Assembly: GCA_021160245.1 (NCBI GenBank)
Contig: JAGHCW010000188.1
Coordinates: 1 to 37,929, forward strand
Source of the DNA: a bacterium
GTDB lineage: Bacteria; B130-G9
Direction of reading: 5' to 3'
Length of the DNA stretch: 37,929 nt
Of the stretch, positions 2,683 through 36,261 are shown piece after piece. The first letter of the stretch is position 1; each line of letters opens with the position of its first letter. The position numbers and the translations under genes are program-made. The notes under the pieces were generated by a model that was given only the letters and a program-made list of their open reading frames with translations, ran no database searches and was not told the DNA's origin.

Positions 2683-2718
2683 AAATCATGGTTTGCTTAA
2701 TGGTCGCTCACAAGAAAC

Positions 2719-3888
2719 TCACGCTCTCAGAACCAAAGCCCCATTGATGCCTCCGAAGCCGGCGCTTGTTGACAGCGCAACTTCGCCATCTATGCGGCAC
2801 GCCTTATTTGAGACCCAACCCCTCGCGTCATCATCAATGTCCAGAAGACCGATTGTCGGCGGCAAGACACCCTCCTTCAGCGCTCTCAGTGTGATGATCA
2901 CCTCTATAAGGCCGGCCGCGCCCAACGTGTGCCCTATCGCGCCCTTGATTGAGAATGTTGGAACTGATCGTTCGCCGAGGGCCGATTTCAAAGCTCTTAT
3001 CTCCATCGCGTCATTATATACCGTAGCCGTTCCGTGCGCCGAGACACAATCGATCTCGCCTTTGTCTATTCCTGACGATTCCAGCGCCTTTCGAATGGCG
3101 ATCGCAAGACCGCTGCCATCGCGCAATGGGCCGGTCATGTGATGAGCGTCGTTGCTCAATCCCAGGCCCAGAACCTCCCCCAGAACGGGGCGACTCTCGC
3201 GCCTCGCCCGGTCCTCACTCATAACCAGCACAAGACCCGCCGCCTCGCCTAAGGTAAGACCATTGCGGTTCTTGTCAAAGGGACGTGCCATATCGGTGTC
3301 GAGCGCCATCAGCGAGGAGAAGCCGGAGAAGACGAACTCGCTCACGCAATCACACGCAACCACAAGCACGCAATCGCGCTCCATACGGCGGACCATCTCA
3401 GCAGCCCTTCCGACCGCAGCCGTCGAAGACACACATGCGGCCGAGATGACCATGCCCGGCCCATCGGTTCCGAAAAGCCGCATGACTTTTTTTAGCAGCA
3501 GATCGAGCCTGCTATCATCTCTATCTGGGCCGTTGTCTCCGCGGAGGACATGTCGCTCTAAAAGGTCGATCTCACCGACCGTCGTGGCCAGAATAGTAGA
3601 GGCATCTGGAGGGATGAGCGAGGCGCACCGGCGCATGATGGGGGAGAGCATTTGCATCACGAGCGACGAATCTGCATTCGGGTTGAGGTCAGGGGCGATG
3701 GCCGCATTGAGTGTTCTGAACGCGTTTGTGTCGAGCCGCTTGAGTTTCTTTACGGCGGTTTTGCCCGACATCAGACCGTCCCAACAGGCGTCCTCGCCAA
3801 GTCCGTAGGGGGTCATAAGCTCGCAGGTCGTGATGACCGCTCTTATCTCATCCAGTCGAACTCTCCCCTCACCCAGCGCTCGCGGCAC
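2719..3888 (-). CDS. Beta-ketoacyl-ACP synthase (KAS I/II type)
   Basis: SAACVSSTAAVGRA active-site Cys, SAHGTATVYNDAMEI and KGAIGHTLGAAG His motifs. Start uncertain: overlaps the 3' end of the upstream thioesterase. Confidence 0.92.
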   Translation of the reverse strand: MPRALGEGRVRLDEIRAVITTCELMTPYGLGEDACWDGLMSGKTAVKKLKRLDTNAFRTLNAAIAPDLNPNADSSLVMQMLSPIMRRCASLIPPDASTILATTVGEIDLLERHVLRGDNGPDRDDSRLDLLLKKVMRLFGTDGPGMVISAACVSSTAAVGRAAEMVRRMERDCVLVVACDCVSEFVFSGFSSLMALDTDMARPFDKNRNGLTLGEAAGLVLVMSEDRARRESRPVLGEVLGLGLSNDAHHMTGPLRDGSGLAIAIRKALESSGIDKGEIDCVSAHGTATVYNDAMEIRALKSALGERSVPTFSIKGAIGHTLGAAGLIEVIITLRALKEGVLPPTIGLLDIDDDARGWVSNKACRIDGEVALSTSAGFGGINGALVLRA

Positions 3889-4343
3889 TTTAGAAGAATC
3901 TCGGGCGCTGATATATAAAAATCCCTATCCAAGCCGGTAAGCATCTGGACGGTGAATCCCGTCGCGGCGAGACTGTTGTCCAGCCGGCGGACCTCGTATT
4001 CGATGTTTATCCTTGCGCCTTCGCAATAAAATAGCGACGCCACAATGGAGAATTCCTCATCCAGCAGGAGAGGACCGTAGTAGTCAACGTGCAGCTGGAC
4101 AATCGGCGCCCGCACCTTGGCCTTCCTGAAATCCTCGAACGATAGGCCAATGTGCCTGAAGAGCTCGGTGAATCCCTGCTCAAAGTATGATGTATAACGG
4201 CCGAACCAGACGATGCCCATTGCATCAACCTCGCTGAAGCTCGCGCGCCCCTTGACTCTTATGACCAGTGGTTTGGGCGCCCCGGCCTGCTGTTCAAAAT
4301 AACCATTTTGCTTGCGTCTAGCATTCATCTGACTCCAAACCAC
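3843..4343 (-). CDS. Acyl-CoA/ACP thioesterase, 4HBT hotdog family (ApeK-like)
   Basis: FSEVDAMGIVWFGRYTSYFEQGFTELFR motif of YbgC/FadM-type thioesterases. Confidence 0.87.
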   Translation of the reverse strand: MVWSQMNARRKQNGYFEQQAGAPKPLVIRVKGRASFSEVDAMGIVWFGRYTSYFEQGFTELFRHIGLSFEDFRKAKVRAPIVQLHVDYYGPLLLDEEFSIVASLFYCEGARINIEYEVRRLDNSLAATGFTVQMLTGLDRDFYISAPEILLKCRERWVRGEFDWMR

Positions 4344-4719
4344 CCGTTTTGAGAGCGACTCGCAGCCGCAGCTCGCATACGCGCTCGTCGCCGTTTGAGA
4401 TCGACGACCTTACCGCAACTTCATTCACTGTGATCATATTCAAGTTGCACTCAACGAGCAAATCCTGCTCGCTAGTTACGGGCAGAAAGAACTTCGCGGA
4501 GACTATCTCGATGAGCTCAACATCATCCGCAAGTTGGGCCTCGAGCATAGCAATCACAGCTCCCACTTGACAGACGGCAGGCAAAACAGGCCTGCCCGGA
4601 AAATGACCCTGAAAGCCCACAAAATCGTCCGCAAATCGGAAATGAGCGCAGAGCCCTCCGTCCTCGGTAGCCGTGAGGCCGGACATGCTACGAAATATCT
4701 GATATGACATGAGGCTCAT
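4318..4719 (-). CDS. FabZ/FabA-like hotdog dehydratase (ApeI-like)
   Basis: FVGFQGHFPGRPVLPAVCQVGAV, cf. HFPGxPVxPGV of 3-hydroxyacyl-ACP dehydratases. Confidence 0.82.
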   Translation of the reverse strand: MSLMSYQIFRSMSGLTATEDGGLCAHFRFADDFVGFQGHFPGRPVLPAVCQVGAVIAMLEAQLADDVELIEIVSAKFFLPVTSEQDLLVECNLNMITVNEVAVRSSISNGDERVCELRLRVALKTGGLESDEC

Positions 4720-5387
4720 TGGCGAACTTCCTTCAACCGAATGATGAGACTATAGCACCCGCGATGATTCTTGAGCAAGATGCCGTCCGGGTATAGCTTT
4801 CCGTTGCGCCGTGTGTATTCTCGATAGTGGATGGTTCTAACGAGCCGGCCATCCTCGAAACATCGCTTCCTAACAAGCGCCTTGTGTGGCCCCGCGAATA
4901 CGTATTCGAGAGTGCGCGCCTCGTCTTTCGACACAAAGGTCACCCTATTGCGACTCTTCTTCACCTGGGCCGATGTGGGGGGAACGCGGTCGAAATAAAT
5001 CGCCCGAATGTCACCGGCGATATTCTGCGCCCAATTTGGCATACGGGAGAATTGCTCAATTGCGAAGCTTGAGTCTATCGCATCGGCGTTTCCTGCAAGC
5101 TCAAAGAGCTTGAGCCCGACCGGGCTAAGGCCAACTGCTGTGAAGGTCTTTTGCTCATCGTTTACTGCGAGCAGACCTAGGGCCGCATAAGCGCGGAAGC
5201 CGAAGCGAAAGACAATGCTGCAAGTCAGATATTGCTCGTTGTGAAGGTCTTCTGCGAATTGCTCCCTGATGTCAGTAGGGCTATCACCCTTGACCGAGAC
5301 GTATTTGACCCGCTCGAAGGGGACCCTACTGCATCCGGCGAGGCCCAGGAATAGTGTGAACATGGTCAGGGCTATGGCGCGTCGCAT
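4716..5387 (-). CDS. Lipoprotein, DUF3261-like (ApeN-like)
   Basis: Start trimmed to internal ATG at 5387 (MRRAIALTMFTLFLGLAGCSRVPF, lipobox LAGC). Overlaps the next start by ATGA. Family by operon context and size. Confidence 0.65.
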   Translation of the reverse strand: MRRAIALTMFTLFLGLAGCSRVPFERVKYVSVKGDSPTDIREQFAEDLHNEQYLTCSIVFRFGFRAYAALGLLAVNDEQKTFTAVGLSPVGLKLFELAGNADAIDSSFAIEQFSRMPNWAQNIAGDIRAIYFDRVPPTSAQVKKSRNRVTFVSKDEARTLEYVFAGPHKALVRKRCFEDGRLVRTIHYREYTRRNGKLYPDGILLKNHRGCYSLIIRLKEVRQ

Positions 5388-5389
5388 AA

Positions 5390-7840
5390 TCAAGTGCAGG
5401 ATGAGCCTTGGGGCCGTGCCCAAAGCCGATATAGCGAAGGCACGACGAGTATTGATGTGATGTAGCCGGCAAGCACTCCGATCACGAGCGTCTGGCCGAT
5501 GGAAAATAGGAGCGCGTGCTTGGCAAACAGAAGCGCGCCTGCGCCAATTACAGTGGTCAACATGGATATACATATCGCCATCGAGGTTCCTATTCTTAGT
5601 CTATTGTGGCAAGCATAAACCATGAATACTCCGTAATCAATTGAGAGGCCAACCACGACCAGGGCTGCGACGACTCTTGCGGCATTCAAGCGCATCCCGA
5701 AGAGAGGAATCGCTCCAAGGACTATCAAGAGCGACGAGACCACAGGAACCAGCGCGATGGCGGCAAGTTTGACCCTACGCAGCAGCAGAAGCGTCAAGAG
5801 CGGTATTATGACAGCGGCAATTGCGGAGAGATAGAGCAACTCCGAGAAGACTGCGTCGGAAATGGCCTGGGAAAGAGCGCTGCGCGAGACGATGAACGTC
5901 CCGGAATGATGCTCGCTGATTTTCGTGAGCGCCGATACGGATGACTCATCGTCGGGGAAATAAGACAAGACCTGATAGCCCTCGTCTTTTTTTAGCACAA
6001 ACTGGTCCTTAAGACTCTCGAAGAAACTGAGACCTTCTGGCCAATCACTAGAGTTCATCTTGGGGTACATGTCGTCGAAGAACGGAGCGAAAGCGTCCAA
6101 AGAGAAATGATGCTCGCTGCCGTGTTCACGAAGAAGGTCCGCTAACTTGGCCTCCCTGCCGGCTCTCCAGAAATCATTCCACCGGGCAAGATTCCTACCC
6201 CGTGTCCTCTTTGATGGCCAGACGGAGGTGAGTCGCGTGAAGTTCTTCTGCCCTAACTTCCGGGTGGCCTCACCTGACACATCTTCCTCGAGCTGAAGAG
6301 CATCCTCCAGCGTCTTGCCGGAACAGACGAGTATGGCAGGCCTATCTCGCCCGCCCCACACATCATGGAATCGTCTCTCCGCCTCCTTAATCTCAGGCTC
6401 GCTTCCGTCAAACTGATTTACATCGCTGTCGAATTTCACGCCGAGCGTGAAGAAGAGTGCGCCGAGTACGATGATGCCCCAGAGCGCCACGAGCAGATAG
6501 TCGGGGAATGCCCCAGATGGCCGTTCGTCAAATCGAAAGGCGCCGGGGAATCGGCTGCAATCGCCGGCTCGCCAGAATTGGGGAAGAATGAGAAGCGCGC
6601 CCGCGAGGCAGAGGGCGATGCTGATTGTGGCAAACAGAGCCAGATGATGATAGCCGATGACGCTGGAGAATACGAGCGACGCGAATACGCCCAGCGTCGT
6701 CAACGCGCCGATTGTTATGGGTTTGGCGACCGCTCGAATGGAATCTGCCCCAGGGCCTTTCATGCGGACCGCCATATAAGTATGAATCCCGTAATCTGCC
6801 GCAATGCCGATGACCACGGCCCCCATACCCACGGCGACATGCGAGATACTCCCAAGCAGAAAGCTCGAGACGTTGATCGACATGAGAACGGCCACAAGCG
6901 GCATGATGAAGATGGTGATCGCCCTAATATCTTTGAAGACAAAAAGGAACAGGAATAAGAATGCGGCCGAGACGATGATGATCGTCAGCCTGACGTCTCG
7001 TTTGACGACTTCCTCGTTGCTGATCGTGTGCAGATGCGCCGCGATGATATCGGTCGATACGAACTCCGGCAGGGCTTTTAGCTGTTTTCTTAGATATGAA
7101 ATCAATTTCCTTGTGCCGTCCGCATCTGTGAGTGGCACTGGGGTCTCGAGCACAAGCATGGCATGCCTCCCGTCTTTGCTGACGAGATGACCATTCTCGA
7201 TCAGAAGGTCGAATCCCGATGAGGATGATAGAGTCTTCAGCGAGCTCAGGATGCCCGTCTTAACGCCTAGCGGATCGGCCCTGATAAACGGTATCGTGAC
7301 CGCGCTCGCGGGTGTCAACAGCTGCCGGAAGTTCTCTGCCATCTTCTTTTTGACGCCGTCCGGTGTTATCTGCTCGTTTGCCTCTTTCAGGGCTGATTCA
7401 TCCAGGATTTGAGGCGCAAAGCTCAAGAACTCGAGCATCTCTTCCATAATGTTCGCCTCGGACGCAATGCCGATAATCTTCGTGATTTGTGGCGGCTTAA
7501 GCGTCTCAGCAAGAGCATCCACCGATTGAAGCAAGTCGTTTTTTGTGTATTCGGGAGACACAAGTCCGAAGGAGAGCACGACCCGGTCTGAGAGCTTTGA
7601 CTCGCGCAAGAATCTCATGCAGCGGCGAACTTGGTTGTTTTGGGGGATGATCAGGTCAAAGTCGGCATCAAACGAGACGAAGCGAAGGCCGATGAGGGCG
7701 GCGATTACGAGTATAGAAATCGAGACGAGAGTTGACCACCTGCGCCCCCCAATCCAGCCGTATAGCTGTGAAAACCAATCAGGACGGATGTCAGGGGGCA
7801 CGAGGCGGGATTTCCCAAACGGAGGCATCGATCTTTTCAT
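5390..7840 (-). CDS. MMPL/RND-superfamily exporter
   Basis: 816 aa; duplicated TM blocks with VIGIAADYGIHTYMAVRM and VVGLSIDYGVFMVYACHN motifs. Confidence 0.92.
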   Translation of the reverse strand: MKRSMPPFGKSRLVPPDIRPDWFSQLYGWIGGRRWSTLVSISILVIAALIGLRFVSFDADFDLIIPQNNQVRRCMRFLRESKLSDRVVLSFGLVSPEYTKNDLLQSVDALAETLKPPQITKIIGIASEANIMEEMLEFLSFAPQILDESALKEANEQITPDGVKKKMAENFRQLLTPASAVTIPFIRADPLGVKTGILSSLKTLSSSSGFDLLIENGHLVSKDGRHAMLVLETPVPLTDADGTRKLISYLRKQLKALPEFVSTDIIAAHLHTISNEEVVKRDVRLTIIIVSAAFLFLFLFVFKDIRAITIFIMPLVAVLMSINVSSFLLGSISHVAVGMGAVVIGIAADYGIHTYMAVRMKGPGADSIRAVAKPITIGALTTLGVFASLVFSSVIGYHHLALFATISIALCLAGALLILPQFWRAGDCSRFPGAFRFDERPSGAFPDYLLVALWGIIVLGALFFTLGVKFDSDVNQFDGSEPEIKEAERRFHDVWGGRDRPAILVCSGKTLEDALQLEEDVSGEATRKLGQKNFTRLTSVWPSKRTRGRNLARWNDFWRAGREAKLADLLREHGSEHHFSLDAFAPFFDDMYPKMNSSDWPEGLSFFESLKDQFVLKKDEGYQVLSYFPDDESSVSALTKISEHHSGTFIVSRSALSQAISDAVFSELLYLSAIAAVIIPLLTLLLLRRVKLAAIALVPVVSSLLIVLGAIPLFGMRLNAARVVAALVVVGLSIDYGVFMVYACHNRLRIGTSMAICISMLTTVIGAGALLFAKHALLFSIGQTLVIGVLAGYITSILVVPSLYRLWARPQGSSCT

Positions 7841-8513
7841 TTAAGCGCGTATCTGAGAATATGAGCCGCGTGCTGTCGCCGCATTTCTCCTGGATGCGAA
7901 TTTCCTGAATGTACTTCTCATCCGGCCTGAATGAGATCTCAATGCTCTTGATGACTTTTGAGATGACGGAGCTCTTTCTGGGCACGAATTTGAGCACTAC
8001 GGGGCAGCTCTTGATAACGGATACTTCGTATTCGCGGCTGAGCAATAGGTACTCGCCGGATAGCCATTGTTTCATCTGCTCGACGGCCTTCTGCATCGGC
8101 GGGTTTTTTGAGAGCGGCGATTTCGTGGTCTTTTTTGTGTCCTCGTCCCACTGATATAGGACATTGTCCTTGATGATCATTGAGTATCGAAGAGGAGTTT
8201 TGACGTGCCAGGCAAGTTGAGCCGGTCTCTTTACGAACAGGTTGCCCTTCAACACGAGTTCTTGGTCCAAAATGGCCAGGCTCTTTCTCTGGACGAATCC
8301 GCTCTCAAGGGAGGTCAGTGATGACATCGTCTTCTGAAGCCTTTGAAGGACGGCCTCCACGTCGGGACCTATCTGGCCGGACGTGTTAGCTGAGGCTTCG
8401 CCGGCCGAGGCGCTGAAGGCGGCCAGGCACAGAGTAATGATGGATAGCGCGCGGCAGGCCCTCAATGCAAAAGCTCTCCTGCTCTCATCCCGCTCCCTTC
8501 GCATGTTTGCCAT
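7791..8513 (-). CDS. LolA-like outer-membrane lipoprotein carrier/sorting protein
   Basis: Signal peptide; LTSLESGFVQRKSLAILDQELVLKGNLFVKRPAQLAWHVKTPLRYSMIIKDNVLYQWD is typical of LolA-like proteins. Confidence 0.83.
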   Translation of the reverse strand: MANMRRERDESRRAFALRACRALSIITLCLAAFSASAGEASANTSGQIGPDVEAVLQRLQKTMSSLTSLESGFVQRKSLAILDQELVLKGNLFVKRPAQLAWHVKTPLRYSMIIKDNVLYQWDEDTKKTTKSPLSKNPPMQKAVEQMKQWLSGEYLLLSREYEVSVIKSCPVVLKFVPRKSSVISKVIKSIEISFRPDEKYIQEIRIQEKCGDSTRLIFSDTRLNEKIDASVWEIPPRAP

Positions 8514-9987
8514 TTGCGCCTTCGTCCTCCCATATCTTTATCTCGCCCTTAGCGAGCAGTTTCCCATTAAGCGAGACCGTTCCTTCGACGATTCCAAAAC
8601 CGCCATACTTCGCGGTCTCCTTCACCCTGATTTCCAGCACATCCCCGACATTCGCGGTTCCAAGAACCTTGAGATTCTTGACGGCAACTAGGAAACCCTC
8701 TAGCGAATAGCCCGGCGCGGCCATCATTCGGAAGCATTTGTGCGCAGCCTTTGTCTGGGCAATCATCTCGATGAAAACGAGCGCATCCAGCGTCCCATCC
8801 TCGGCGACGAACGGCATGGCCTCCGTGATGGTCACGGTGGCCTTGGCGGTGCGCTCGCCAACCTCGATAAGATGGTCAACGACCCGTATCGGCAGACGGT
8901 GTGGAATGATCCCCTCAATCAAGAGCGGCAGAGCGGTAATCTCGTCTTGTCGTTCTATATTCATCCAGCATAGTGGGTCGGAGGCGAGGTAGTTGCCCGT
9001 CAACTGGTATGCCGCGCCTCGGCAGCCATAGCAGCCGTCCTTTTTCTCGCACGTTCCACAAGGGCCTTGTATTGTGTTGTGATAGTTCTTCAGGTCTCGC
9101 ATGACCTCGCTTGTGCTCAAGATGTCGGCAAGGGCCAGCTGCCTTATGCTGCCAATTGGGATGGTTACGCCGACGCACGGGAAGACGTCACCATGCGAAC
9201 TTACGAGGCAGGAAAAAAGATGCCGCATACATCGGTGCCCGAGTAGTGGGGGCTGAGGGTCCCAGGCGAGGCCGTATTCATTCCGGTCGATTGCGCAAAC
9301 CTCGGAAAAAAGAGCATGGAGCCTCTCTGGCTCAACTTCCAGCCACTGATTGCTATTCGCGTTTCCCTGAGGCGTTATCATCTCGAAGTAGGGGACGATC
9401 TCCTGGTCTCGCAACCACCTCCACATTTTTGGCAGATCGTCGATGTTCTGCTTGCAGATGATAGTGCTGACCGCCAAAACCGCGCTCTTGGAGGGGTAGC
9501 CCGCTTCCTTTAGATTTGCGAATGCTGAGCGGATTATCTTGAATGACCCGGGCCTGCCGGTAAGCGTGTCCTGTGTTTTCTCATCAAATGAGTTCATCTT
9601 CAATATGACCCGAACGTCCAGGTCAATGAGCTCTTTTGCGACTTCGGCCGATAGATTCGTCCCGTTTGTGAACATCTCCACGCAAAGTCCCTCGTTCCTG
9701 ATGAACCTCAGCGTCGGGAGTATCCTGGGGTGGAGCATCGGCTCTCCGCCTAGGATGATAATCCGCTTTGCCCCTAAGTCTTTTGCCTGCCGGATAACAT
9801 CGCGAACTTCCTCGTCCGTGAGCTCATTTACGAGGTCAGACGCCTTTGGGACATAGCAATATGGGCAGTTGAAATCGCAGCGCAAGCTCAGCTCGAGCTC
9901 CATAGATAGAAGCCGCCCCTCTCTGACAGCCTGCTCAATCTGCTCTTGAGACTCGCACCCCGGAACGCTTATGTGGCAGAGCGGCAA
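8485..9987 (-). CDS. Radical SAM/SPASM enzyme fused to C-terminal ApeP/FabZ-like hotdog dehydratase domain
   Basis: N-term CDFNCPYC (CxxxCxxC), GGEPML; SPASM cysteines CVGV...CGTCEKKDGCYGC...DPLC. C-term IIPHRLPIRVVDHLIEVGERTAKATVTI...LVFIEMIAQTKAAHK...GTVSLNGKLLAKGEIKIWE. One uninterrupted 500-aa frame. Confidence 0.87.
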   Translation of the reverse strand: MPLCHISVPGCESQEQIEQAVREGRLLSMELELSLRCDFNCPYCYVPKASDLVNELTDEEVRDVIRQAKDLGAKRIIILGGEPMLHPRILPTLRFIRNEGLCVEMFTNGTNLSAEVAKELIDLDVRVILKMNSFDEKTQDTLTGRPGSFKIIRSAFANLKEAGYPSKSAVLAVSTIICKQNIDDLPKMWRWLRDQEIVPYFEMITPQGNANSNQWLEVEPERLHALFSEVCAIDRNEYGLAWDPQPPLLGHRCMRHLFSCLVSSHGDVFPCVGVTIPIGSIRQLALADILSTSEVMRDLKNYHNTIQGPCGTCEKKDGCYGCRGAAYQLTGNYLASDPLCWMNIERQDEITALPLLIEGIIPHRLPIRVVDHLIEVGERTAKATVTITEAMPFVAEDGTLDALVFIEMIAQTKAAHKCFRMMAAPGYSLEGFLVAVKNLKVLGTANVGDVLEIRVKETAKYGGFGIVEGTVSLNGKLLAKGEIKIWEDEGANGKHAKGAG

Positions 9988-11267
9988 CTTGCTGGCTCCT
10001 CTCTAAAAAAGCGAACCGGTTTTCGCGACCCCTCGTCATAGACGCGTCGTCGAATTGCAGCCTCATCCAAGACAACCACCTCGGGTCTCACTCGCAGTCT
10101 AGCCTGGAGCCTCCGGATTATCTCGTTCGCCTCGGCAGACGGGTCCTTCAGCGCTACATATATGGTTAGGATATCGGATAGATTGGCATCTGTCCGCAAC
10201 TCAAGATAATAGTCGCAGACGGCGTCAATCTCGTCTAGTACCGAGTAAACGGTCTGGGGGTATAGCGTCGTACCTCGGACTTTCATCATCTGCTGCTTTC
10301 TGCCGAGAATGGGACCCAGCCGAGGCGTTATTCGTCCGCATGAACAAGGCTCGTCGATAAGGAAGCTGATGTCTCCCGTCTTGAAGCGGATGAGCGGCAT
10401 TCCCTCAACCATCATGGGTGTTATCACGAGCTCTCCGATCTGTCCCGGCGGCAAGACTGAGCCCTCGTTATCTACTATCTCGGCGATGGCGAGGTCGGGA
10501 TGCAGATGCCCCCCCGCCTGGGCTGCGCATTCGCAGAAAGTCGTTACCATCTCGGACGAGGCGTATGTGGAGAAGACCTTTGCGCCCCAGATGCTCTCCA
10601 AGTCTGCGCCCACCTTCAGAGGCGCAAGTCGCTCATCACGCAACGGCTCCCCTATGCAGACAAGTCGCTTAACTGCGGTCCTTCTGGGGTCGATGCCCTT
10701 CTTCTGAAGATGAATCCCAAGCCTCCTCAGGAATGTGGGGACACCCACAATCGCGGTAGGGTTCATCCTCGCTATGATCTCCGTGTGGCTCTGAGGCGTA
10801 TTGACGCCGTTGCGAATCGCCGCAGCGCCTAAGGCCCGGGTCCCAAGGAAATAGGCCAGGCCCGCGACGAAGCATCTGTCAATCGTGCAGGTCAAGAGGA
10901 CTATGTCGCTAGCTGTGATGCCACAAGCTGCAAACGACTTCATCTCGTTATACTCCAGCCGCCGCAGGTCGTGTTCAGTGTACATCACCTGGGTTGGCTT
11001 GCCGCAGGTCCCGGACGACAGAACGATATCGACTATCTGATTTGAAGAGACGGCGCGGAACTCATCGTTTGCCAGCTCAAAATCCGTCTTATCCGTAAAT
11101 GGCAGATCGGACATCTGGTCAAGAGTTATCCGCTCGATGTCCGGGGCTAGGTCTTCGAGAAGCTTTCTATAATAAGGCGAATTAGCCCGACAATAGGCCA
11201 GATGCTCTCGCAGGTTCTTCTGCTGGACGTCCCTGATGGCCTTGGGATCGGAGAATGCTATGTCCAA
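9969..11267 (-). CDS. Adenylate-forming ligase, phenylacetate-CoA ligase (PaaK/CapK)-like
   Basis: VLSSGTCGKPTQVMYTEHDLRR (P-loop), STYASSEMVTTFCEC, IRFKTGDISFL, C-terminal MKVRGTTLYPQTVY. Confidence 0.88.
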   Translation of the reverse strand: MDIAFSDPKAIRDVQQKNLREHLAYCRANSPYYRKLLEDLAPDIERITLDQMSDLPFTDKTDFELANDEFRAVSSNQIVDIVLSSGTCGKPTQVMYTEHDLRRLEYNEMKSFAACGITASDIVLLTCTIDRCFVAGLAYFLGTRALGAAAIRNGVNTPQSHTEIIARMNPTAIVGVPTFLRRLGIHLQKKGIDPRRTAVKRLVCIGEPLRDERLAPLKVGADLESIWGAKVFSTYASSEMVTTFCECAAQAGGHLHPDLAIAEIVDNEGSVLPPGQIGELVITPMMVEGMPLIRFKTGDISFLIDEPCSCGRITPRLGPILGRKQQMMKVRGTTLYPQTVYSVLDEIDAVCDYYLELRTDANLSDILTIYVALKDPSAEANEIIRRLQARLRVRPEVVVLDEAAIRRRVYDEGSRKPVRFFREEPASCRSAT

Positions 11268-11284
11268 ATGTCGATGGAGCTCGA

Positions 11285-12091
11285 TTATTCCGCCTCTTGA
11301 TCCATTTCAGCAGTCCGGGCCGCGATGATTGCTCGGACGTGATTCTTCAGTTCAAACGGTTTCATTTTCTTAAACACTTCCCACTTAAGTGCAGGGAGCT
11401 TATACAGCTTTATCTTACCCGGTTGAAGCACAAAGTCACGTGAGGGTATTTTCTCATTCCCGACGACGCACATGGGCACGATGGCGCATTGAGATTCAAG
11501 CGCGATGCGGAAGATAGAACCGTGGAATTGCCCCATGTCGGAGCTTCCTGACCGCGTCCCCTCAGGAAACGCGACTATGGAGACGCCATCTTTGAGCAAT
11601 CTGAGCGCCTTGGCGGAGAAATCAGCGAATGATATCTCGTTGACGCTGAGATAGCCCGCCATCCGTGCTGCTCTACCCAGAATAGGGATATTAAATGTCC
11701 AGGTATTCGCTACTTGGACAGCTTCAAACGGGAGACAGCCCATCAGGAATGGGTCCGAGGCGGAACGGTGATTACAGATGAAGATGAAGGGGCCAGGGCC
11801 GTCATCGGGACCGAGATTTCTGTAGCGAACTCTTATCAACGGGAAGGCAAGCCCATATATCACTGCAAGGCCATACCAGCTGATGCTTCGGCGAAGCCGC
11901 CTCAAAGCGAGCCTTCGAGAGAAAATGCCAATGATAAGAACCGCCGGGACCAATGCTAAAACGGCGAGCGGTGTAAAGAGCAGCAGCCACACGTAGAAGA
12001 ACGTGTTGAGATAGACGACGCGAAAATCTCTGTATTTTCTAAGGCCCCAGAAGAATGACAATGTGGATTTGAGTCGCCGGAGACGGGGCAT
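11285..12091 (-). CDS. 1-acyl-sn-glycerol-3-phosphate acyltransferase-like (LPLAT) protein
   Basis: FICNHRSASDPF (NHxxxxD) and VAFPEGTRSGSSDMGQFHGSIFRIA. Start trimmed to MPRLRRLKSTL to limit overlap with the ACP. Confidence 0.86.
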   Translation of the reverse strand: MPRLRRLKSTLSFFWGLRKYRDFRVVYLNTFFYVWLLLFTPLAVLALVPAVLIIGIFSRRLALRRLRRSISWYGLAVIYGLAFPLIRVRYRNLGPDDGPGPFIFICNHRSASDPFLMGCLPFEAVQVANTWTFNIPILGRAARMAGYLSVNEISFADFSAKALRLLKDGVSIVAFPEGTRSGSSDMGQFHGSIFRIALESQCAIVPMCVVGNEKIPSRDFVLQPGKIKLYKLPALKWEVFKKMKPFELKNHVRAIIAARTAEMDQEAE

Positions 12092-12104
12092 CTCTACACC
12101 GTCC

Positions 12105-12383
12105 TCAAACCGGTTTCTTGTCCGATTGGCTTTCCAAAGAGAGCTCAATGACATAATCATAAACGTCGCCTAAGGTCCGGATGCCTCTGAGTCTGGGGTC
12201 ATCACGAACCTTGACGTCGAACTTCTGCTGCAATCCAACGGCCAGGTCCACAACATCTAGGCTGTCCAAACCCAAATCATCAAACAAGTGCCTCTCGCGC
12301 AGAAGGTCGGCTTGCTTGATCTCAAAGGACTCCTTGAAAACCTCGTTGACCGCCGCGACTATCTGCTCATTTGTCATATCCAA
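12105..12383 (-). CDS. Acyl carrier protein
   Basis: 92 aa with LFDDLGLDSLDVVDLAVGLQQKF phosphopantetheine attachment motif. Confidence 0.92.
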   Translation of the reverse strand: MDMTNEQIVAAVNEVFKESFEIKQADLLRERHLFDDLGLDSLDVVDLAVGLQQKFDVKVRDDPRLRGIRTLGDVYDYVIELSLESQSDKKPV

Positions 12384-12399
12384 CCAGGTCTCGCTCCTA

Positions 12400-13626
12400 T
12401 CAATTCTCGGCCTTCTTGCAGACTAAGGCCGCGTTTATTCCGCCAAATGCAAAGCAGTTCTTGATAAAAATATCAATCTTGCGGCGTAGTAGGTTGATTA
12501 CATGATGCGGTCCACTGCAATCTGGGTCAACATTCACAAGGTTCAGCGTCGGGAATATCGCGCCTTCTGCCATCATGGCAAGTGACACTATAAGCTCAAG
12601 CGCGCCCGATGCGCCGAGGGTATGTCCGATATGCCCTTTGAGGCTGCTCACAGGCACGTTGTCCCCCAATATCTGGCTTATCGCTTCCGCCTCTTCCTTA
12701 TCCCCCTGGAGCGTCGCAGTTGCGTGGGCATTGATGTAATCAACGTCCGCCGGGGAAATCCCCGCGTCTTTCATCGCATTGCTGAGGCAGGAGATTATTG
12801 AGGCGCTGTTTGATTGGCTGATGTGCGCTCCGCTGCCGCAGGTGTTGTATCCGATGATCTCCCCATAGACCTTCGCCTCTCTTCTCCGAGCATGATCGTA
12901 TTCCTCAAGCACTATCATTCCGCTACCCTCGCCGCAGACAAGTCCGTCTCTATCTTTGTCGAATGGCCTCGGCGTTTTTTGCGGCTCGTTATTGTAGTTT
13001 GTGGAAGTCGCCATAAGAACGTCAAATATCCCGGTTACCGTCGGATGAAGCTCCTCTGCCCCGCCGCAAAGCGCCAAGTCCTGCCTGCCGAGACGGATCA
13101 AATCGTATCCGACGCCGATTGCCTGCAAGGCAGACGCACACGCCGCAGACGTTGCCATCACGCAGCCCGTAATTCCGAGCAGCTGCGCCACGTTCATCGC
13201 TGCCGTGTGAGAAACGCACTGAAAGAACTTTGTCGAGGTTAGGTTCGTGATGTTCCGCTCTGGCAGAATCGTATCATAAGCCTCGAATATGCTCTGAGCG
13301 CCGCCCATTGTTGAGCCGATAATGCACCCCATACGACCCGAAGTCCGCGCCTCGTCCTCTATGCGCGCGTCCTTGAGAGCTTGCTGAGCAGCCTGCGCGG
13401 CGAAGAGACTCATCCGGCCCATTGTCCGCCGATACTTTCGGGGGATCGCTTTGGGATTCACAAGCTCGGCCGGCGCCGCGACGAGGCTTTTGAGACCGGT
13501 CAGTTCATCCCACCCGTCCATGAACCTGACGGCGCTTCTGCCTTGTCTTATGCCCTCAATAAGCGAGGGGACATCGCCGCCCAAACCAGAAACAGCGCCT
13601 ACTCCGGATATAATAACTCTCTTCAA
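12400..13626 (-). CDS. Beta-ketoacyl-ACP synthase II-like
   Basis: TSAACASALQAIGVGYDLI (Cys), NAHATATLQGDKEEAEA, KGHIGHTLGASG. Probable TTG start (LKRVIISGVGAVSGLG); ORF extends to 13716. Confidence 0.9.
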   Translation of the reverse strand: MKRVIISGVGAVSGLGGDVPSLIEGIRQGRSAVRFMDGWDELTGLKSLVAAPAELVNPKAIPRKYRRTMGRMSLFAAQAAQQALKDARIEDEARTSGRMGCIIGSTMGGAQSIFEAYDTILPERNITNLTSTKFFQCVSHTAAMNVAQLLGITGCVMATSAACASALQAIGVGYDLIRLGRQDLALCGGAEELHPTVTGIFDVLMATSTNYNNEPQKTPRPFDKDRDGLVCGEGSGMIVLEEYDHARRREAKVYGEIIGYNTCGSGAHISQSNSASIISCLSNAMKDAGISPADVDYINAHATATLQGDKEEAEAISQILGDNVPVSSLKGHIGHTLGASGALELIVSLAMMAEGAIFPTLNLVNVDPDCSGPHHVINLLRRKIDIFIKNCFAFGGINAALVCKKAEN

Positions 13627-13737
13627 TCTTGTATTCTCCGATTTCTTAGGTCGCCCGTCGCCTTGCTCGTGCGCCAGGCTATGTCCGACAAGTTGGCGAA
13701 GGAGGATTCTTCCCATATTCCGCCTGCCGGAAACATC

Positions 13738-14469
13738 TTACATGGCCATGCCGCCGTTGACGCCGATGACCTGTCCATGAATGTACATGTTCTCCTCGGT
13801 GCAGAGGAAATCAACGAGCGCAGCTACGTCTTCTGGCATGCCGAAGCGATTTAGTGGAATGAGCGGCAGTATCTCGCCCTTGTTAAGACCAGCAGTCATG
13901 TCAGTCTCGATAACGCCCGGGGCAACCACATTGACTAGTATGTGCTTCCGTCCGACCTCTCTCGCCAGCGCTTTCGCGGCGCCTATTAGCCCCGCCTTTG
14001 ACGCCGAGTAATTGACCTGACCTCCGTGTCCGATTTGGCCAGAAATCGAGGAGATAACTACGATGCGGCCTCGTTTGACACGAAGCATCGGAAACAGAAT
14101 CGAATGTATCACATTGTAAAAGCCGTCGAGATTGGTGGACAGCACGGTATCCCACTCATCTTTTGTCATCCAAACAAGGAGATTGTCACGGGCGATTCCA
14201 GCGCAGAACACAACGGCATCTGGGGGGGTCTCATTCGCTCTATCCTCAAGAGACTCTCTCGTCTGCTCATAATTAGAGATATCGAATGACAGTGGCAGGC
14301 ACAACCGTCCTAGCGACTCAACCTCCGCTCCAACCGCCGCCGCCGCCTCGTGATTGCTGTAGTATCCGAGCCATATATCAAAGCCGGAACGGGCGAGGCG
14401 CAACGCTATTGCGCGTCCAATGCCACGGCTACCTCCGATAACAAGCGCGGTTTTCTCATCTCTGCTCAT
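13738..14469 (-). CDS. 3-oxoacyl-ACP reductase (FabG-like SDR)
   Basis: ALVIGGSRGIGRAIALRLARSG, VISSISGQIGHGGQVNYSASKAGLIGAAKALARE, PGVIETDMT. Start trimmed to MSRDEKTALVIGG. Confidence 0.93.
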   Translation of the reverse strand: MSRDEKTALVIGGSRGIGRAIALRLARSGFDIWLGYYSNHEAAAAVGAEVESLGRLCLPLSFDISNYEQTRESLEDRANETPPDAVVFCAGIARDNLLVWMTKDEWDTVLSTNLDGFYNVIHSILFPMLRVKRGRIVVISSISGQIGHGGQVNYSASKAGLIGAAKALAREVGRKHILVNVVAPGVIETDMTAGLNKGEILPLIPLNRFGMPEDVAALVDFLCTEENMYIHGQVIGVNGGMAM

Positions 14470-14482
14470 TTGCAGATATCCC

Positions 14483-15103
14483 TTAGAAAAATGTTCCCAC
14501 GATAAACGCCACGAAATCAGTTCCGGCGTTATCTCGATGAAACCCGCCGTTTGAGATGTGCCCAAATCGTATGGCTGCGAAGATTGGCTCCCACGTCTTG
14601 AACGAGAGCTCCACGCCCAGTCCGGCCCTCGGGTTGAAATTGAACCTAAGTCCCTGCCCCGACCGCCGGAAATCTGTGTAAATAACGCCTATTCCCGCCT
14701 CGAGATAGGGACGTATGCCGCCGGGGAAATCGCCCAGATAGTTGAATACTAGCATTCCGATCGAGGCCATAGCTCGACGGTTGGGACGGACTGTCATTCC
14801 GGTCGCGCACTCGAGTTTCAGGCGCAAGCGCTTTGGTACCTCGTGGTGACTGAACTTCGCATAGTCGAGGATCGCACAGCCCGAAAGCAGAGCGAAGCTG
14901 CGGTCGAAGTCTGGGTTATAGGTGTTCCCAAGCACTGCTGACACCCCATAGCGGTTACGGATGCTTTTGGTCTCATTCTCCTCTGAGCAAGCTCTGCCTG
15001 GAATCGCCACTGCAATGACAACCAAGAGAACCAGCGGAAATAATGCAGTACGAACCGGATGCAGACCAGCTGCTGTCAAATCTGTGATCGAATGGGAGCC
15101 CAT
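14483..15103 (-). CDS. PagL-like lipid A 3-O-deacylase / acyloxyacyl hydrolase family
   Basis: Signal peptide, beta-barrel-like C-terminus with RFGHISNGGFHRDNAGTDFVAFIVGTFF (PagL-type HxSN...N.G motif, terminal Phe). Confidence 0.78.
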   Translation of the reverse strand: MGSHSITDLTAAGLHPVRTALFPLVLLVVIAVAIPGRACSEENETKSIRNRYGVSAVLGNTYNPDFDRSFALLSGCAILDYAKFSHHEVPKRLRLKLECATGMTVRPNRRAMASIGMLVFNYLGDFPGGIRPYLEAGIGVIYTDFRRSGQGLRFNFNPRAGLGVELSFKTWEPIFAAIRFGHISNGGFHRDNAGTDFVAFIVGTFF

Positions 15104-15325: not shown

Positions 15326-15406
15326 TTTTGTGTGGTATGCCGAATTCAGATATCCCGTTGCATTCCTATCGAAAAGGCCCTCATGTCATTGCCTTTTCTT
15401 TGGCTC

Positions 15407-16330
15407 TCAGCTCTTCAGCGCGGCCCGGACTTTCGACGCTAGCAGGGCGAGTTGATATGGCTTCTGCGCTAGATCGAGCGCGCCATCATCAATCATCTTC
15501 TGCACCTTATCATCCATAGTATAGCCCGAAGCAAGAATGGCCCGAACATTCGGATCGATCTTTTTGAGCGCTGTAAAGCACTCACTGCCGCCCATCTCAG
15601 GCATGATCATGTCGATTTTTAACACCCCCAGTTCGAGAATGGCCACCTGTTGGGTTTGAGTCCTCAACAGATGCGCATACATCTCCTCTTCCGCAATCTT
15701 CCGTTCTGCAACATCGCGACTGGCGACGGAGATCACATCCCGATCGTCCAAGATGCCGCGTGAAAGCTCCGTCTCAACGTGTAATATCCCACCATCTTTG
15801 GTCCGAAATCTCTCTTTCGTTTTCTGCCGTCTCCCATAAGCCGCCTCAGCAAGAGCTCACCCCGCCTTAGCCATTTGATCGGGCGCATATAGCAACCGGA
15901 AACTCTTGCCCAAAAGGTCTTGCTCAGAATAGCCTAAAGACTCTTCCACAGCCCTATTGGCACGGATTATGGCTCCCCCGAGATCCGTGATTAGCATAAT
16001 GTGGTCCTTGGGGTTGCGATGCCCCTTCATTTCGTCATCCAAGTGTCGTTCATCCGCGCCGTCGGGCGATAGCGCCGAGGAGGCGGCACGATCAGGGGAG
16101 AAGGCCTGAGAGTCGCCGGGCAAGTCCACGGACAACTCTCGATCGATGCATTGCTGAAGAACTTTCAGCACGAGATTCTCGTCTTGCGGCTGCCATACAT
16201 ATTGTGCGATGCTGTTCTCGCAGAACAACTCCATGCAGACGAAACTCATTCCGGGAGGGGAAGATGGGAAATCAGAACCGCAGGATGACACTCTCAATAG
16301 TAATCCTCTTATCCGCATTTCTGTTCTCAA
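15407..16330 (-). pseudogene. Remnant of PAS-containing hybrid sensor kinase: PAS, premature TGA, second PAS end, then receiver fragment with histidine kinase core missing
   Basis: ORFs 15857..16330 and 15407..15751 share a frame and are joined by ...DQMAKAG*ALAEAAYGRRQKTKERFRTKDGGILHVETELSRGILDDRDVIS. The following ERKIAEEEMYAHLLRTQTQQ jumps directly into a receiver tail (IDMIMPEMGGSECFTALKKIDPNVRAILASGYT). Confidence 0.8.
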
Positions 16331-23083: not shown

Positions 23084-23166
23084 CGGAGGGGGTAGGATTC
23101 GAACCCACGGACCTTTCGGTCTGCGGTTTTCAAGACCGCCGCCTTCGACCTCTCGGCCACCCCTCC
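23084..23166 (-). tRNA. tRNA-Ser (anticodon TGA)
   Basis: Minus strand GGAGGGGTGGCCGAGAGGTCGAAGGCGGCGGTCTTGAAAACCGCAGACCGAAAGGTCCGTGGGTTCGAATCCTACCCCCTCCG: 7-bp acceptor stem, long variable arm, GTTCGAATC T-loop, TGA anticodon. CCA not encoded. Confidence 0.95.
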
Positions 23167-23245
23167 AGAGTACATTTCGGTTTATAGTATAGCCCTTTCG
23201 CGGAGATATACAATGCGCACTCGGAAATGATCAAGAGATTTGTAG

Positions 23246-23274
23246 TTGCATTTTAATGAGGAAGGAGTTATATT
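23246..23274 (+). promoter_or_regulatory. Putative sigma70-like promoter upstream of the lipoprotein/xer genes
   Basis: TTGCAT - 17 nt - TATATT. Confidence 0.35.
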
Positions 23275-23369
23275 TATTGTAGAATAGTTGAAACAGAATG
23301 GCTAGCATCAACGGTTGTTCCTTTGTTAGGCAAGGCATGCGGCAGCTGCGCTCTGAAAGGAGGAGTGTG

Positions 23370-23819
23370 ATGTTAAGCGGTTTTAAGTTCCAGGCCTTAT
23401 TTGTGCTGCTGGCCTGTATCACCATGCTTGGGTGCTCGGGAGAGCCGTTTGTGACACCTGAAACCACGGTGGCAGAGTACGTCGAGGCATACAACGACGG
23501 TGACACAAAGTCGATGGCGGTATGCGGCAATGATGTTGATGTGCGCAAGATATTCGTCAAGTCCGAGGAGAATCTGCTGGGCGAGCGGATACTGATTCCG
23601 ATTAAGGACATCAAGTTCGAGGTCATTAGCGTGAATCAGAGGCCCCGCACGACTTTAGCAAACCAGTTCTTGACGGAGGATGCCTGGGTCGAGGCGGAAT
23701 TCACATCAGCTGACGACAGCGATTTCCGCAGAATAACGACCATCAGGCTTGTCAATAGGACGCATAGCTACTACATCGAGGCCCCTCATTGGCAGATTGT
23801 CCCCTTGAAGGGCGATTGA
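23370..23819 (+). CDS. Small predicted lipoprotein (NTF2/DUF4878-like fold suspected)
   Basis: Start trimmed to MLSGFKFQALFVLLACITMLGCSGEP (lipobox); ETTVAEYVEAYNDGDTKSM. Confidence 0.6.
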   Translation: MLSGFKFQALFVLLACITMLGCSGEPFVTPETTVAEYVEAYNDGDTKSMAVCGNDVDVRKIFVKSEENLLGERILIPIKDIKFEVISVNQRPRTTLANQFLTEDAWVEAEFTSADDSDFRRITTIRLVNRTHSYYIEAPHWQIVPLKGD

Positions 23820-23858
23820 TGTCCGGTCTCTCAGAAGTCCTTCGCCCGGCCTGAGATT

Positions 23859-24824
23859 TTGGCAGACACCGAAATAGGGGACGTGCTGCGCTTCGGGCAG
23901 TACCTTTCGGCGCACGCGTATTCGGTGCATACCGTCAGGAACTATTGCTCGGATATCGAGGTCTTCATTCGGTATCTGATTGGCAATGGGACCGTTCATC
24001 TGTGCAAAGTCGACCCCGGAGAGAGCCAGCTTGAACTGGACGCCTCCGAACTTTCCCGCTTGAGCCCCGCGACCATAGGGGCCTACGTCAGCTATCTGTT
24101 CCTCGAAGGCAATTCCAAGGCCAGCATAAAGCGGCGACTTGCCTCCGTAAAAGCCTTCTTCAGATTCAAGTGCCGGCAGGAAGATTTCCCCGATAATCCC
24201 GCCCTTTTAGTCTCTGCACCCAAGTCAACGAGCAAGCCTCCCGTATTCCTTAGCGTTAACGAGGCGTTCGCGCTAGTTGAGTCGGCCGGGACAAAGCAGA
24301 CATTTTTCTCGATTCGGGATAGGGCGATTCTTGAGATTCTGTATAGCACGGGCATAAGAGTCGCTGAGCTCTGCGCGCTCTCGCTTTTCGATCTTGATCC
24401 AGGCGCGGGTCAGATTCGCGTTTTCGGCAAGGGCGGCAAGGAGCGACTTGTGCCGATGGGCAATGCTGCAAGCAAGTCCCTAAAGAGCTATTTGAGTTTG
24501 CGGTCAAGGCCGTCTGTTCGATATAAGGGCCCCAAGGACCCGCGGGAGAAGGCCGTCTTTCTGAATAGAGCCGGAACCAGGCTTTCGGACAGATCGGTCA
24601 ATAAGATCGTGCATAGATATACCGCTATATCCGGAATGGTTAAGGAGATTGGCCCGCATAAGCTCCGCCACACGTGCGCGACGCACCTATATGATTCGGG
24701 GATGGGTATTCGGGATTTGCAGGAGTTACTCGGCCATGAGAGCATTAGCACGACGTCGATTTACACTCACGCGGGCATAGAGCGACTCAAGAAAGTCTAT
24801 AAGAAAGCACACCCGAGAGCTTGA
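23859..24824 (+). CDS. Tyrosine recombinase, XerC/XerD-like
   Basis: R...HxxR...H/W...Y set: LYSTGIRVAELCAL, GPHKLRHTCATHLYDSGMGIRDLQELLGHESISTTSIYTHAGIERLKKVYKKAHPRA. First codon TTG or nearby. Confidence 0.92.
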   Translation: MADTEIGDVLRFGQYLSAHAYSVHTVRNYCSDIEVFIRYLIGNGTVHLCKVDPGESQLELDASELSRLSPATIGAYVSYLFLEGNSKASIKRRLASVKAFFRFKCRQEDFPDNPALLVSAPKSTSKPPVFLSVNEAFALVESAGTKQTFFSIRDRAILEILYSTGIRVAELCALSLFDLDPGAGQIRVFGKGGKERLVPMGNAASKSLKSYLSLRSRPSVRYKGPKDPREKAVFLNRAGTRLSDRSVNKIVHRYTAISGMVKEIGPHKLRHTCATHLYDSGMGIRDLQELLGHESISTTSIYTHAGIERLKKVYKKAHPRA

Positions 24825-28429: not shown

Positions 28430-29999
28430 CTATTCAGTTTGAATGATGGGAATCCCTTGAGGGTCAGACTCGTGAGGTCTATGACCAGTTTGTCCGGTCT
28501 TTGCACGGGTATCACCAGATGTTTCAGCCTTCTCGCGTTTCGACCCGGCGACCCACTCAACAAACTCTGGTGGTGCGTTTTTCACAAGATACGCTGCGCG
28601 CTTCAGATGTTCAGCTCTGGCGATGCATGACAACACTGGAAAGCGCTCGATGTTGTGCCCGTCTATTCGAGCCATGTCATTGAAGCACCCGCCCGCGCAA
28701 TTATACCTCATTGGGCACTTCCCACAGACAGGCGAGTCCCAGAAGAACTTGCGCCGCTCGCGCATTAGCGATTGCTGGTCGAAACCTCCGAATACATCGC
28801 CAATCCTATAATCTTCATTATCTAAGAACGTATAGCACGAGAAAAGGGCCCCGTCGGGTCGCACGGAGTAACTCCCTCGGCAAGCTCCGCAGCCGCTAAG
28901 CGGGAAAGCAGGCTCCAGAACTTCTGAAGAGAGGCTGAAGATGGGATTGACGACCACTCTACGCCCGGCTGCCATCAACCTCACCCACCTGTCAGTTAAC
29001 TCATCAGAAAAAGAGCGAAATACATCAATGTTGTCCTGTTGCCAAGAGGAGGCCATGGGCGCCGCAGGTCGGTCGGTGACGTAATCATGGGCAGCCGTGA
29101 ATGAATACTTGATAGGCGCCGAAAGAGAAGAGAAAATCCAGGTTCTCGTCTATGAGCTTTCTGGGTCCAGGAACGACCGTGACCCTAAAATGGACATTTC
29201 GGTTCATTTGGCCGACGACGAGGCGTATCTTTGCCAGGAGGTCCTCATATCTACGGCGGGAGTTGCCAATCCGATAGCGCTGGAACTCGAACATTCCATC
29301 GAAGCTTAATACCGGCACGATGTTTTTCTCGATGAACAGATCGACAATGCTATCTGTAAGGAGTGATCCATTTGTGGTTATTGCGAAGATGATCTTCCTG
29401 CCATGTCTCTCTGCGGCATGCTCTGCATACTCAATAGTCTGTCTCATCAAGCTCTCACAGAGTAGAGGTTCTCCACCGAAGAATGTTAAGGATATTGGGT
29501 GCTTCCCCGGTGTTTGCATCAAGAAATCAACCGCGCTTCTAGCTGTATTAACCGACATGTGCGTTCGATACTGTGGCGGAATGCCCTTCAAGTTGCAGTA
29601 TTCACACGAGAAGTTGCACCGGAGTGTCACGCAGAGCGTGAGCCCCGTGGGGCAATAACGCGGTCGCAACCTCGCCCGTTTGCTCGCAGGTGGGATGAGA
29701 TTTCACAAGCTGTTCATAGAGCACGGGGACATGCTCGGGTTCAGGGCCCAGCCCCTCCGGCCAACACTCATAGCGGACATCTGACCAATTCTCGCTTTCG
29801 AGGTATCTGTTGATGCGCGGAACGCCCCGCCATTGTGATCTGGGTAGTGGTTCGTCACCTGGAGGTAACTCAGGGACTTTGTAAAAGCGGCAGTTTCCGG
29901 CTGCCACAAGAAGGCCATATTCCGAAAATAATACCCTAAGTAGTATGGACGATCCCTAAGCTCTGTAGAATATAACAGTCTCGATCTCCTGCTACCCAT
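28430..29999 (-). pseudogene. Radical SAM/SPASM peptide-maturase-like gene split over several reading frames
   Basis: Ordered minus-strand segments: 29999 MGSRRSRLLYSTELRD...; then a second frame PELPPGDEPLPRSQWRGVPRINRYLESENWSD...EQTGE; then RPRYCPTGLTLCVTLRCNFSCEYCNLKG (CxxxCxxC)...FGAYQVFIH; then AAHDYVTDRPAAPMASSWQQDNIDVF... with SPASM cysteines CGAC...SCYTF...CGKCPMRYNCAGGCF...LSC. Three frame changes near 29880, 29660 and 29090. Confidence 0.82.
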
Positions 30000-30027: not shown

Positions 30028-30123
30028 TCAGAGAAACTGACCATGGCACGAACCTCTATAACCCCTAGTCCCAGTCTGGTAGTTGCCCCAGCTTCCACCT
30101 CCACTAGTGCCCCCCATTTTCAT
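30028..30123 (-). CDS. Candidate RiPP precursor / Gly-rich microprotein, 31 aa
   Basis: Manual translation: MKMGGTSGGGSWGNYQTGTRGYRGSCHGQFL*. AGGA about 8 nt before ATG. Stop lies about 28 nt before the maturase-like gene start at 29999. Not in the supplied ORF track (below length cut-off). In-frame alternative ATG at 30147. Confidence 0.5.
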   Translation of the reverse strand: MKMGGTSGGGSWGNYQTGTRGYRGSCHGQFL

Positions 30124-30185
30124 CTCAACGGTCCTATCGCGGGGCATTGCACCTGGCCGCTATCGCTTGAACGCATAGTAAGGAT

Positions 30186-30215
30186 ATAATACCGGGTTTC
30201 AGGGCTTTCTGTCAA
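30186..30215 (-). promoter_or_regulatory. Sigma70-like promoter upstream of microORF and radical SAM gene
   Basis: Minus strand TTGACA (30215-30210) - 18 nt - TATTAT (30191-30186), 63 nt upstream of the microORF ATG. Confidence 0.6.
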
Positions 30216-34750: not shown

Positions 34751-35005
34751 AGGCATCTGATTGACAAAGTAAATCAAGCCGCTTGACTTCAATCTGCACA
34801 CCTATTGATGCTAGCTCTTCTTTTCAGCCATAACTCGCTAGACTTTTCCGTGGTATGTTTGTTCAGTGTTGGGTGTAACTTGAAATGATAGGCCTGGGTT
34901 AGTATTTGGGTGTTAGAACAGCTCGCTATGCGTATGCCTAACGCGTTTTCTGATTTCGAGTTATTTGTGTTTAGTTAAGTGATGCAACCGTAAGGGAGAG
35001 CTTTG

Positions 35006-36261
35006 ATGTCCAAGACCTTTAATGAGATTGTATTGGAACATCTGGATGAAGCAGCGAAGAAGGTCAACTTGGACCCGGACTGCTATGTGAGGATGAAACA
35101 GCCTGAGCGCGAGCTGAAGGTCTCGATCCCGGTGAGAATGGATGATGGACACGTTGATGTCTTCACTGGATATCGAGTGCAACACTCCACCTCAAGAGGC
35201 CCTTGCAAGGGCGGGATCAGATATCATCCCGACGTGACGCTGGACGAGGTCAAGGCGCTCGCAATGCTAATGACATGGAAGTGCGCGGTGGTGAATATCC
35301 CCTATGGCGGGGCAAAGGGGGCTGTCCGGTGTAACCCGATGGAGATGTCGGAAAGCGAGCTGGTGCGTTTAACCAGGCGCTACACGGTCATGATCATGCC
35401 GATTATCGGCCGCCAGAAGGACATTCCAGCGCCCGACGTAGGGACTGACGAGGACACTATGGGTTGGATGATGGACACGGTCAGCATGTTTCAAGGCCAG
35501 ACGGTTCTGGACATGGTTACCGGTAAGCCTGTCAGTCTAGGTGGTTCGCTCGGTAGGCGCGAAGCAACTGGCCGAGGCGTCATGATCTGCACCCTCGAGA
35601 TTCTAAAGAAGTTCGGAAAGGACATCTCAGCCACAACTGTGGCCGTACAGGGATTCGGCAACGTTGGATCAGTGGCGGCAGACCTTCTCGCTGAAAAGGG
35701 ATGCAAAGTGGTCGCGGTAGGCGATGTCACCGGAGGCTACTACAACCCTAAAGGACTAGACATAAAGGGAATGATTGAGCACGCCACAAAGCACCCATTC
35801 AAACTCCTCGAAGGCTACGAATGCAACGGGACAAGTCGCATCTCAAACGAGGAACTGCTTACCCTTGATGTGGACGTGCTTGCGCCCTGCGCTTTGGAGC
35901 GGCAGATTGTGAAGAGGAATGCCGCCGATGTTAGAGCGAAGTTCATAGTTGCCGGCGCAAATGGCCCAGTTAGCAGGATGGCGAGAGAATACTTCAGGAC
36001 AAAGGGACTATAATAATCCCCGACATTCTCGCCAATAGCGGTGGCGTAATAGTTTCCTACTTCGAATGGGTGCAGGACATTCAGGTCTTCTTCTGGGATG
36101 TGGGCCAGATCAACAATCACCTCGAGCGACTGATAATTCGAGCATTCGACGAAATCTGGGAACTCTCTCAGAAGGAAAAAGTGAGCATGAGGATGGCGGC
36201 GTATATGATAGCCATTAAGAGGGTTGCCGACTCCATCAATAAGAGACGCATCTTCCCGTAG
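35006..36261 (+). pseudogene. gdhA: Glu/Leu/Phe dehydrogenase (glutamate dehydrogenase), frameshifted near the C-terminus
   Basis: GPCKGGIRYHPDVTLDEVKALAMLMTWKCAVVNIPYGGAKGAV, GFGNVGSVAADLL, IVAGANGPVSRMAREYFRTKGL* then in another frame IIPDILANSGGVIVSYFEWVQDIQVFFWD...NKRRIFP* (36013-36261). The two halves are contiguous parts of one GDH. Confidence 0.9.

What the first reader, a model, noticed from the sequence alone, without database searches (positions are those of the whole stretch)
30028..30123. Uncalled 31-aa Gly-rich microORF upstream of a radical SAM/SPASM gene: candidate RiPP precursor
Seen: MKMGGTSGGGSWGNYQTGTRGYRGSCHGQFL*, same strand as and about 28 nt upstream of the maturase-like gene, with an SD-like AGGA. 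Established: many RiPP systems have a short Gly-rich precursor beside a SPASM maturase, and three-residue cyclophane enzymes act on aromatic-X-X motifs. The peptide contains W-G-N, Y-Q-T and Y-R-G. Inference: possible cyclophane or other C-C/thioether-linked RiPP. The leader is unusually short.
Basis: partly seen in the sequence, partly recalled or inferred. Interest (0 to 1): 0.75.

Follow-up and report, generated by a model that had tools for sequence, protein, structure and literature searches.

The report
Gly-rich small ORF beside broken maturase
A short glycine-rich reading frame really does sit between a strong promoter and a disrupted radical-SAM enzyme gene, but no relative of it was found anywhere searched, so it is an unproven and possibly accidental candidate for a small modified peptide.

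Summary
The 31-aa frame exists as described (minus strand, 30028-30123; an in-frame ATG at 30147 would make it 39 aa) and has an AGGA 8 nt before its ATG. ORFs of this length are common by chance here (66% of shuffles), but none of 2000 shuffles gave one both SD-preceded and this Gly-rich. Codon bias is neutral. No homologue of the peptide or its GGGSWGN(Y) motif was found above chance. The neighbour is a genuine radical SAM/SPASM protein on the QhpD/PapB (thioether) side of the family, with no orthologue found (best full-length match 33%). It is split into at least two frames, has no recognisable RRE in any frame, and is absent from the three related genomes held. A housekeeping GDH in the window is also frameshifted, so assembly error and gene decay cannot be separated. 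The peptide has one Cys and no Asp or Glu, and the enzyme is not close to cyclophane-forming families. The precursor reading is neither supported nor excluded; I put it at about 30%.

The parts
30028..30123 (-). 31-aa Gly-rich microORF (MKMGGTSGGGSWGNYQTGTRGYRGSCHGQFL), stop included
   Evidence: SD AGGA 8 nt upstream; chance tests
30124..30147 (-). in-frame upstream extension (ATG 30147, MPRDRTVE) giving a 39-aa alternative
30186..30215 (-). sigma70-type promoter-like site TTGACA-N18-TATTAT, 11 of 12 matches, the only one that good in the window
   Evidence: 0.23 expected in shuffles of the whole window
29085..29669 (-). radical SAM half of the maturase (CNFSCEYC, GGEP), 194 codons open
   Evidence: PapB model 117 bits, Pfam Radical_SAM 1.2e-13
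28430..29056 (-). SPASM half of the maturase in a different frame (frame change near 29100)
   Evidence: TIGR04085 43 bits; profile of homologues continues from position 282 to 289 across the frame change
29602..29907 (-). 101-codon open frame (GTG), possible maturase N-terminus in a third frame; no RRE or other family match
   Evidence: AlphaFold without alignment pLDDT 40, uninformative
29703..29999 (-).

Best explanation
The locus holds a lineage-specific, diverged QhpD/PapB-side radical SAM/SPASM gene between two conserved housekeeping blocks. The promoter at 30215-30186 would transcribe a leader that contains the microORF and then the maturase (inferred). The maturase reading frame is disrupted as assembled (shown). 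Most likely the microORF is not a functioning RiPP precursor but a fortuitous short frame in the G-rich leader of a decayed, or mis-assembled, maturase gene, giving no modified product.
For: ORFs of this length arise in 66% of shuffles of this stretch; neutral codon score; no relative in the own genome, phylum members, plasmids, or near homologous maturases, where shuffled peptides score as high as the real one (maxima 38-53 against 45); motif hits in 386 genomes about as frequent as the backward control, and none of the viral motif hits has a radical SAM gene nearby; maturase in at least two frames and no RRE found; no maturase next to the conserved flanking genes in G001-G003.
Against: A near-perfect promoter and a well-placed SD stand directly before the ORF, and the Gly content with SD is not reproduced in 2000 shuffles. 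The GDH gene in the same window is frameshifted although intact in all three relatives, so the maturase breaks may be assembly errors and the gene may be whole in the organism. No orthologous loci exist in the collections to test constraint.
Confidence: 0.5

Rival explanations
1. The microORF is the precursor of a RiPP: it is co-transcribed with the maturase from the promoter at 30215, translated from ATG 30123 or 30147, and the maturase links Cys (thioether to Thr, Asn or an alpha carbon) or Trp-Gly-Asn (three-residue cyclophane).
For: Order, strand, promoter and SD; SD plus Gly-rich ORF unique in the window; related ranthipeptide enzymes form Cys-Asp, Cys-Glu, Cys-Thr or Cys-Asn links and Trp-X-Asn is a known cyclophane motif (PMC11002830).
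Against: No conservation detectable; one Cys and no Asp/Glu; almost no leader and no RRE found; enzyme scores far better with thioether families (PapB 117, nif11-like 111, QhpD 102 bits) than with cyclophane ones (AmcB 52, YhhB 47); maturase disrupted as assembled.
Confidence: 0.3
2. The ORF is a translated or untranslated 5' leader element that controls the maturase (upstream ORF or leader RNA), not a product.
For: It lies between promoter and maturase.
Against: No Rfam match and no unusual RNA folding (z = 0.61).
Confidence: 0.1
3. The ORF is a scrap of the decayed 5' end of the maturase or of another lost gene.
For: The whole 28.4-30.2 kb stretch is broken into several frames and the true N-terminus of the maturase cannot be placed.
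Against: No frame upstream of about 29700 matches any homologue N-terminus.
Confidence: 0.1

Closest known systems
PapB family ranthipeptide maturases (NCBIfam NF047865) and freyrasin-type precursors
   Same: Radical SAM plus SPASM arrangement; best profile match of both halves (117.4 and 48.9 bits).
   Different: Far below the family cut-off of 340 bits even when summed; frame broken; the peptide has one Cys and no Asp/Glu, whereas freyrasin has six Cys-Asp rings (PMC11002830).
QhpD, quinohemoprotein amine dehydrogenase maturase (TIGR03906)
   Same: Third-best match of the radical SAM half, 101.6 bits; the best long relative found (G311, L058/L085, 33%) appears to lie in a qhp-like operon (my reading).
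   Different: I saw no qhp-type structural genes next to the maturase here; both halves are below the 453-bit cut-off.
Triceptides (three-residue cyclophane RiPPs: XncB, OscB, MscB)
   Same: The peptide contains W-G-N, fitting the Trp-X-Asn pattern reported for XncB/OscB.
   Different: Single motif; the enzyme's 25 best family matches are led by thioether-type maturases and the cyclophane enzymes among them score low; no characteristic leader.

Membership tests
PapB-type ranthipeptide system | Maturase over the PapB family cut-off (340 bits) | tested here: not met
   117.4 and 48.9 bits on the two halves; the gene is broken, so the test is partial
PapB-type ranthipeptide system | Cys-rich precursor with Cys/Asp or Cys/Glu pairs | tested here: not met
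   31 aa: one Cys, no Asp or Glu
PapB-type ranthipeptide system | RRE or leader-recognition domain | tested here: inconclusive
   No match of homologue N-termini in any frame; the N-terminal frame is uncertain
Triceptide (3-residue cyclophane) | Aromatic-X-X core motif | tested here: met
   W-G-N present once; Trp-X-Asn links described in PMC11002830
Triceptide (3-residue cyclophane) | Maturase of XncB/OscB/MscB or related cyclophane families | tested here: not met
   Best matches PapB, nif11-like, QhpD, CcpM; AmcB 52 bits and YhhB 47 bits, far below their cut-offs of 425 and 445; broken gene, so partial
RiPP precursor in general | Conserved beside orthologous maturases | tested here: inconclusive
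   No orthologous loci found; no peptide relative near distant homologues
RiPP precursor in general | Peptide made and modified | not testable with these tools
   Needs expression and mass spectrometry

The most novel reading that the evidence does not exclude
A nearly leaderless, Gly-rich 31-39-aa precursor is cross-linked (W-G-N cyclophane or a Cys thioether to Thr/Asn) by a QhpD/PapB-side maturase without a recognisable RRE, in a poorly sampled phylum; the frame breaks would be assembly errors.
Probability: 0.12. Interest if true: 0.55.

Novelty: new member of a known kind. Interest (0 to 1): 0.25.

Why it matters
If real, it would extend radical SAM RiPPs to a sparsely sampled bacterial phylum, with an enzyme only about a third identical to anything found and an unusually short precursor. 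If not, it is a useful example of how a promoter, an SD and a Gly-rich frame beside a broken maturase can look like a RiPP cluster.

Tried and rejected
Peptide searches in the own genome and relatives (only weak hits with E of 0.2 or more, one with two stops inside), in plasmids (none) and in viral contigs (query too short). Motif GGGSWGNY back-translated and scanned in viral contigs (7 unrelated frames) and GGGSWGN in 386 genomes (9 genomes with hits including this one, about as many hits as the backward control). Rfam (only a tRNA). RNA fold of the leader (ordinary). AlphaFold of the 101-codon frame alone (pLDDT 40, meaningless). An apparent N-terminal match of L072 in the radical SAM frame vanished when composition adjustment was switched off, so it was dropped. 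The metagenome collection, where orthologues are most likely, could not be scanned. Scans of genome contigs and viral contigs for the maturase gave only distant relatives.

Full report
Observation. The peptide is encoded exactly as stated, on the minus strand. The frame also opens at ATG 30147 (39 aa). AGGA precedes ATG 30123 by 8 nt, and a promoter-like TTGACA-N18-TATTAT at 30215-30186 (11 of 12) is the only site that good in the 38-kb window, with 0.23 expected in shuffles. ATG ORFs of at least 31 codons occur in 66% of shuffles of the 443-nt intergenic stretch, SD-preceded ones in 12.5%, and SD-preceded ones with at least 29% Gly in none of 2000. The last criterion was chosen after the fact. 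Codon usage neither supports nor excludes coding: the microORF scores -0.003 bits per codon, but the homology-verified SPASM stretch scores only 0.011.

The neighbour. The radical SAM half (29669-29085) and the SPASM half (29056-28430) are clear by homology but lie in different frames. A profile of 23 homologues runs from position 282 to 289 across the break, and its N-terminal part matches nothing upstream in any frame. Neither has homologues, so '28 nt upstream of the maturase' is not established. Family placement is on the thioether side: PapB 117 bits, nif11-like 111, QhpD 102, CcpM 96; cyclophane enzymes AmcB and YhhB score 52 and 47. The best long relative found is 33% identical (G311, L058). 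It sits between a 546-aa protein with CxxCH motifs and a small Cys/Trp-containing ORF followed by a repeat protein, which I read as a qhp operon (inference, not tested with family models).

Broken gene or bad assembly. In the same window the Glu dehydrogenase gene changes frame near 36010: relatives' single proteins match 35003-36010 and 35965-36258 in two frames. A signalling gene at about 15.2-16.3 kb looks truly decayed (fragments of PAS and receiver domains, an in-frame stop). So both assembly indels and real decay are possible here, and the maturase cannot be called dead with confidence.

Comparative evidence. Only three other genomes of the phylum are held. They keep the glycosyltransferase (about 60% identity) and the SufS-like gene (65-71%) with neighbours as far as their contigs reach (LolA-like and RdgB; RsmD). 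Downstream of the glycosyltransferase G001 and G002 have other genes (a cytidine deaminase-like ORF; an AAA-type ATPase-like ORF, my reading of the translations), and none has an orthologue of the maturase. So the maturase and microORF are lineage-specific among the genomes available. No relative of the peptide was found in those genomes, in plasmids, or in 83 loci around radical SAM homologues, where shuffled versions of the peptide score as well. The GGGSWGN motif in 386 genomes is at about the level of the backward control.

Interpretation. A precursor is plausible by position and promoter. The peptide has one Cys and no acidic residue, almost no leader, and a single W-G-N that fits the Trp-X-Asn cyclophane pattern (PMC11002830), while the enzyme lies nearer thioether-forming families. 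I judge a fortuitous ORF in the leader of a disrupted maturase gene most likely (0.5), a real precursor next (0.3). The deciding evidence, orthologous loci or reads, was out of reach.

Noticed in passing
window 35003-36258 (+): Glu dehydrogenase gene with one frame change near 36010, although its orthologues in all three related genomes are intact; suggests indel errors in this assembly or very recent inactivation.
   Followed up: yes
window 15400-16330 (-): Remnants of a PAS/response-regulator signalling gene with an in-frame stop and apparently a large part of the protein missing.
   Followed up: partly
window 23084-24824: A tRNA (23084-23166, minus) lies about 0.7 kb from a tyrosine recombinase gene (23859-24824, plus).
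   Followed up: no
window 1963-14565 (-): Cluster of beta-ketoacyl-ACP synthases, FabG-like reductase, FlxY-like acyl-CoA ligase, acyltransferase, HpnN-like RND transporter and a radical SAM/SPASM protein, resembling an aryl-polyene/flexirubin-type pathway.
   Followed up: no
L085 3079-7730: Divergent qhp-like operon in genome G311: CxxCH-containing subunit, QhpD-like maturase (4476-6167), small Cys/Trp-containing ORF (6272-6610) and a beta-propeller-like subunit.
   Followed up: partly
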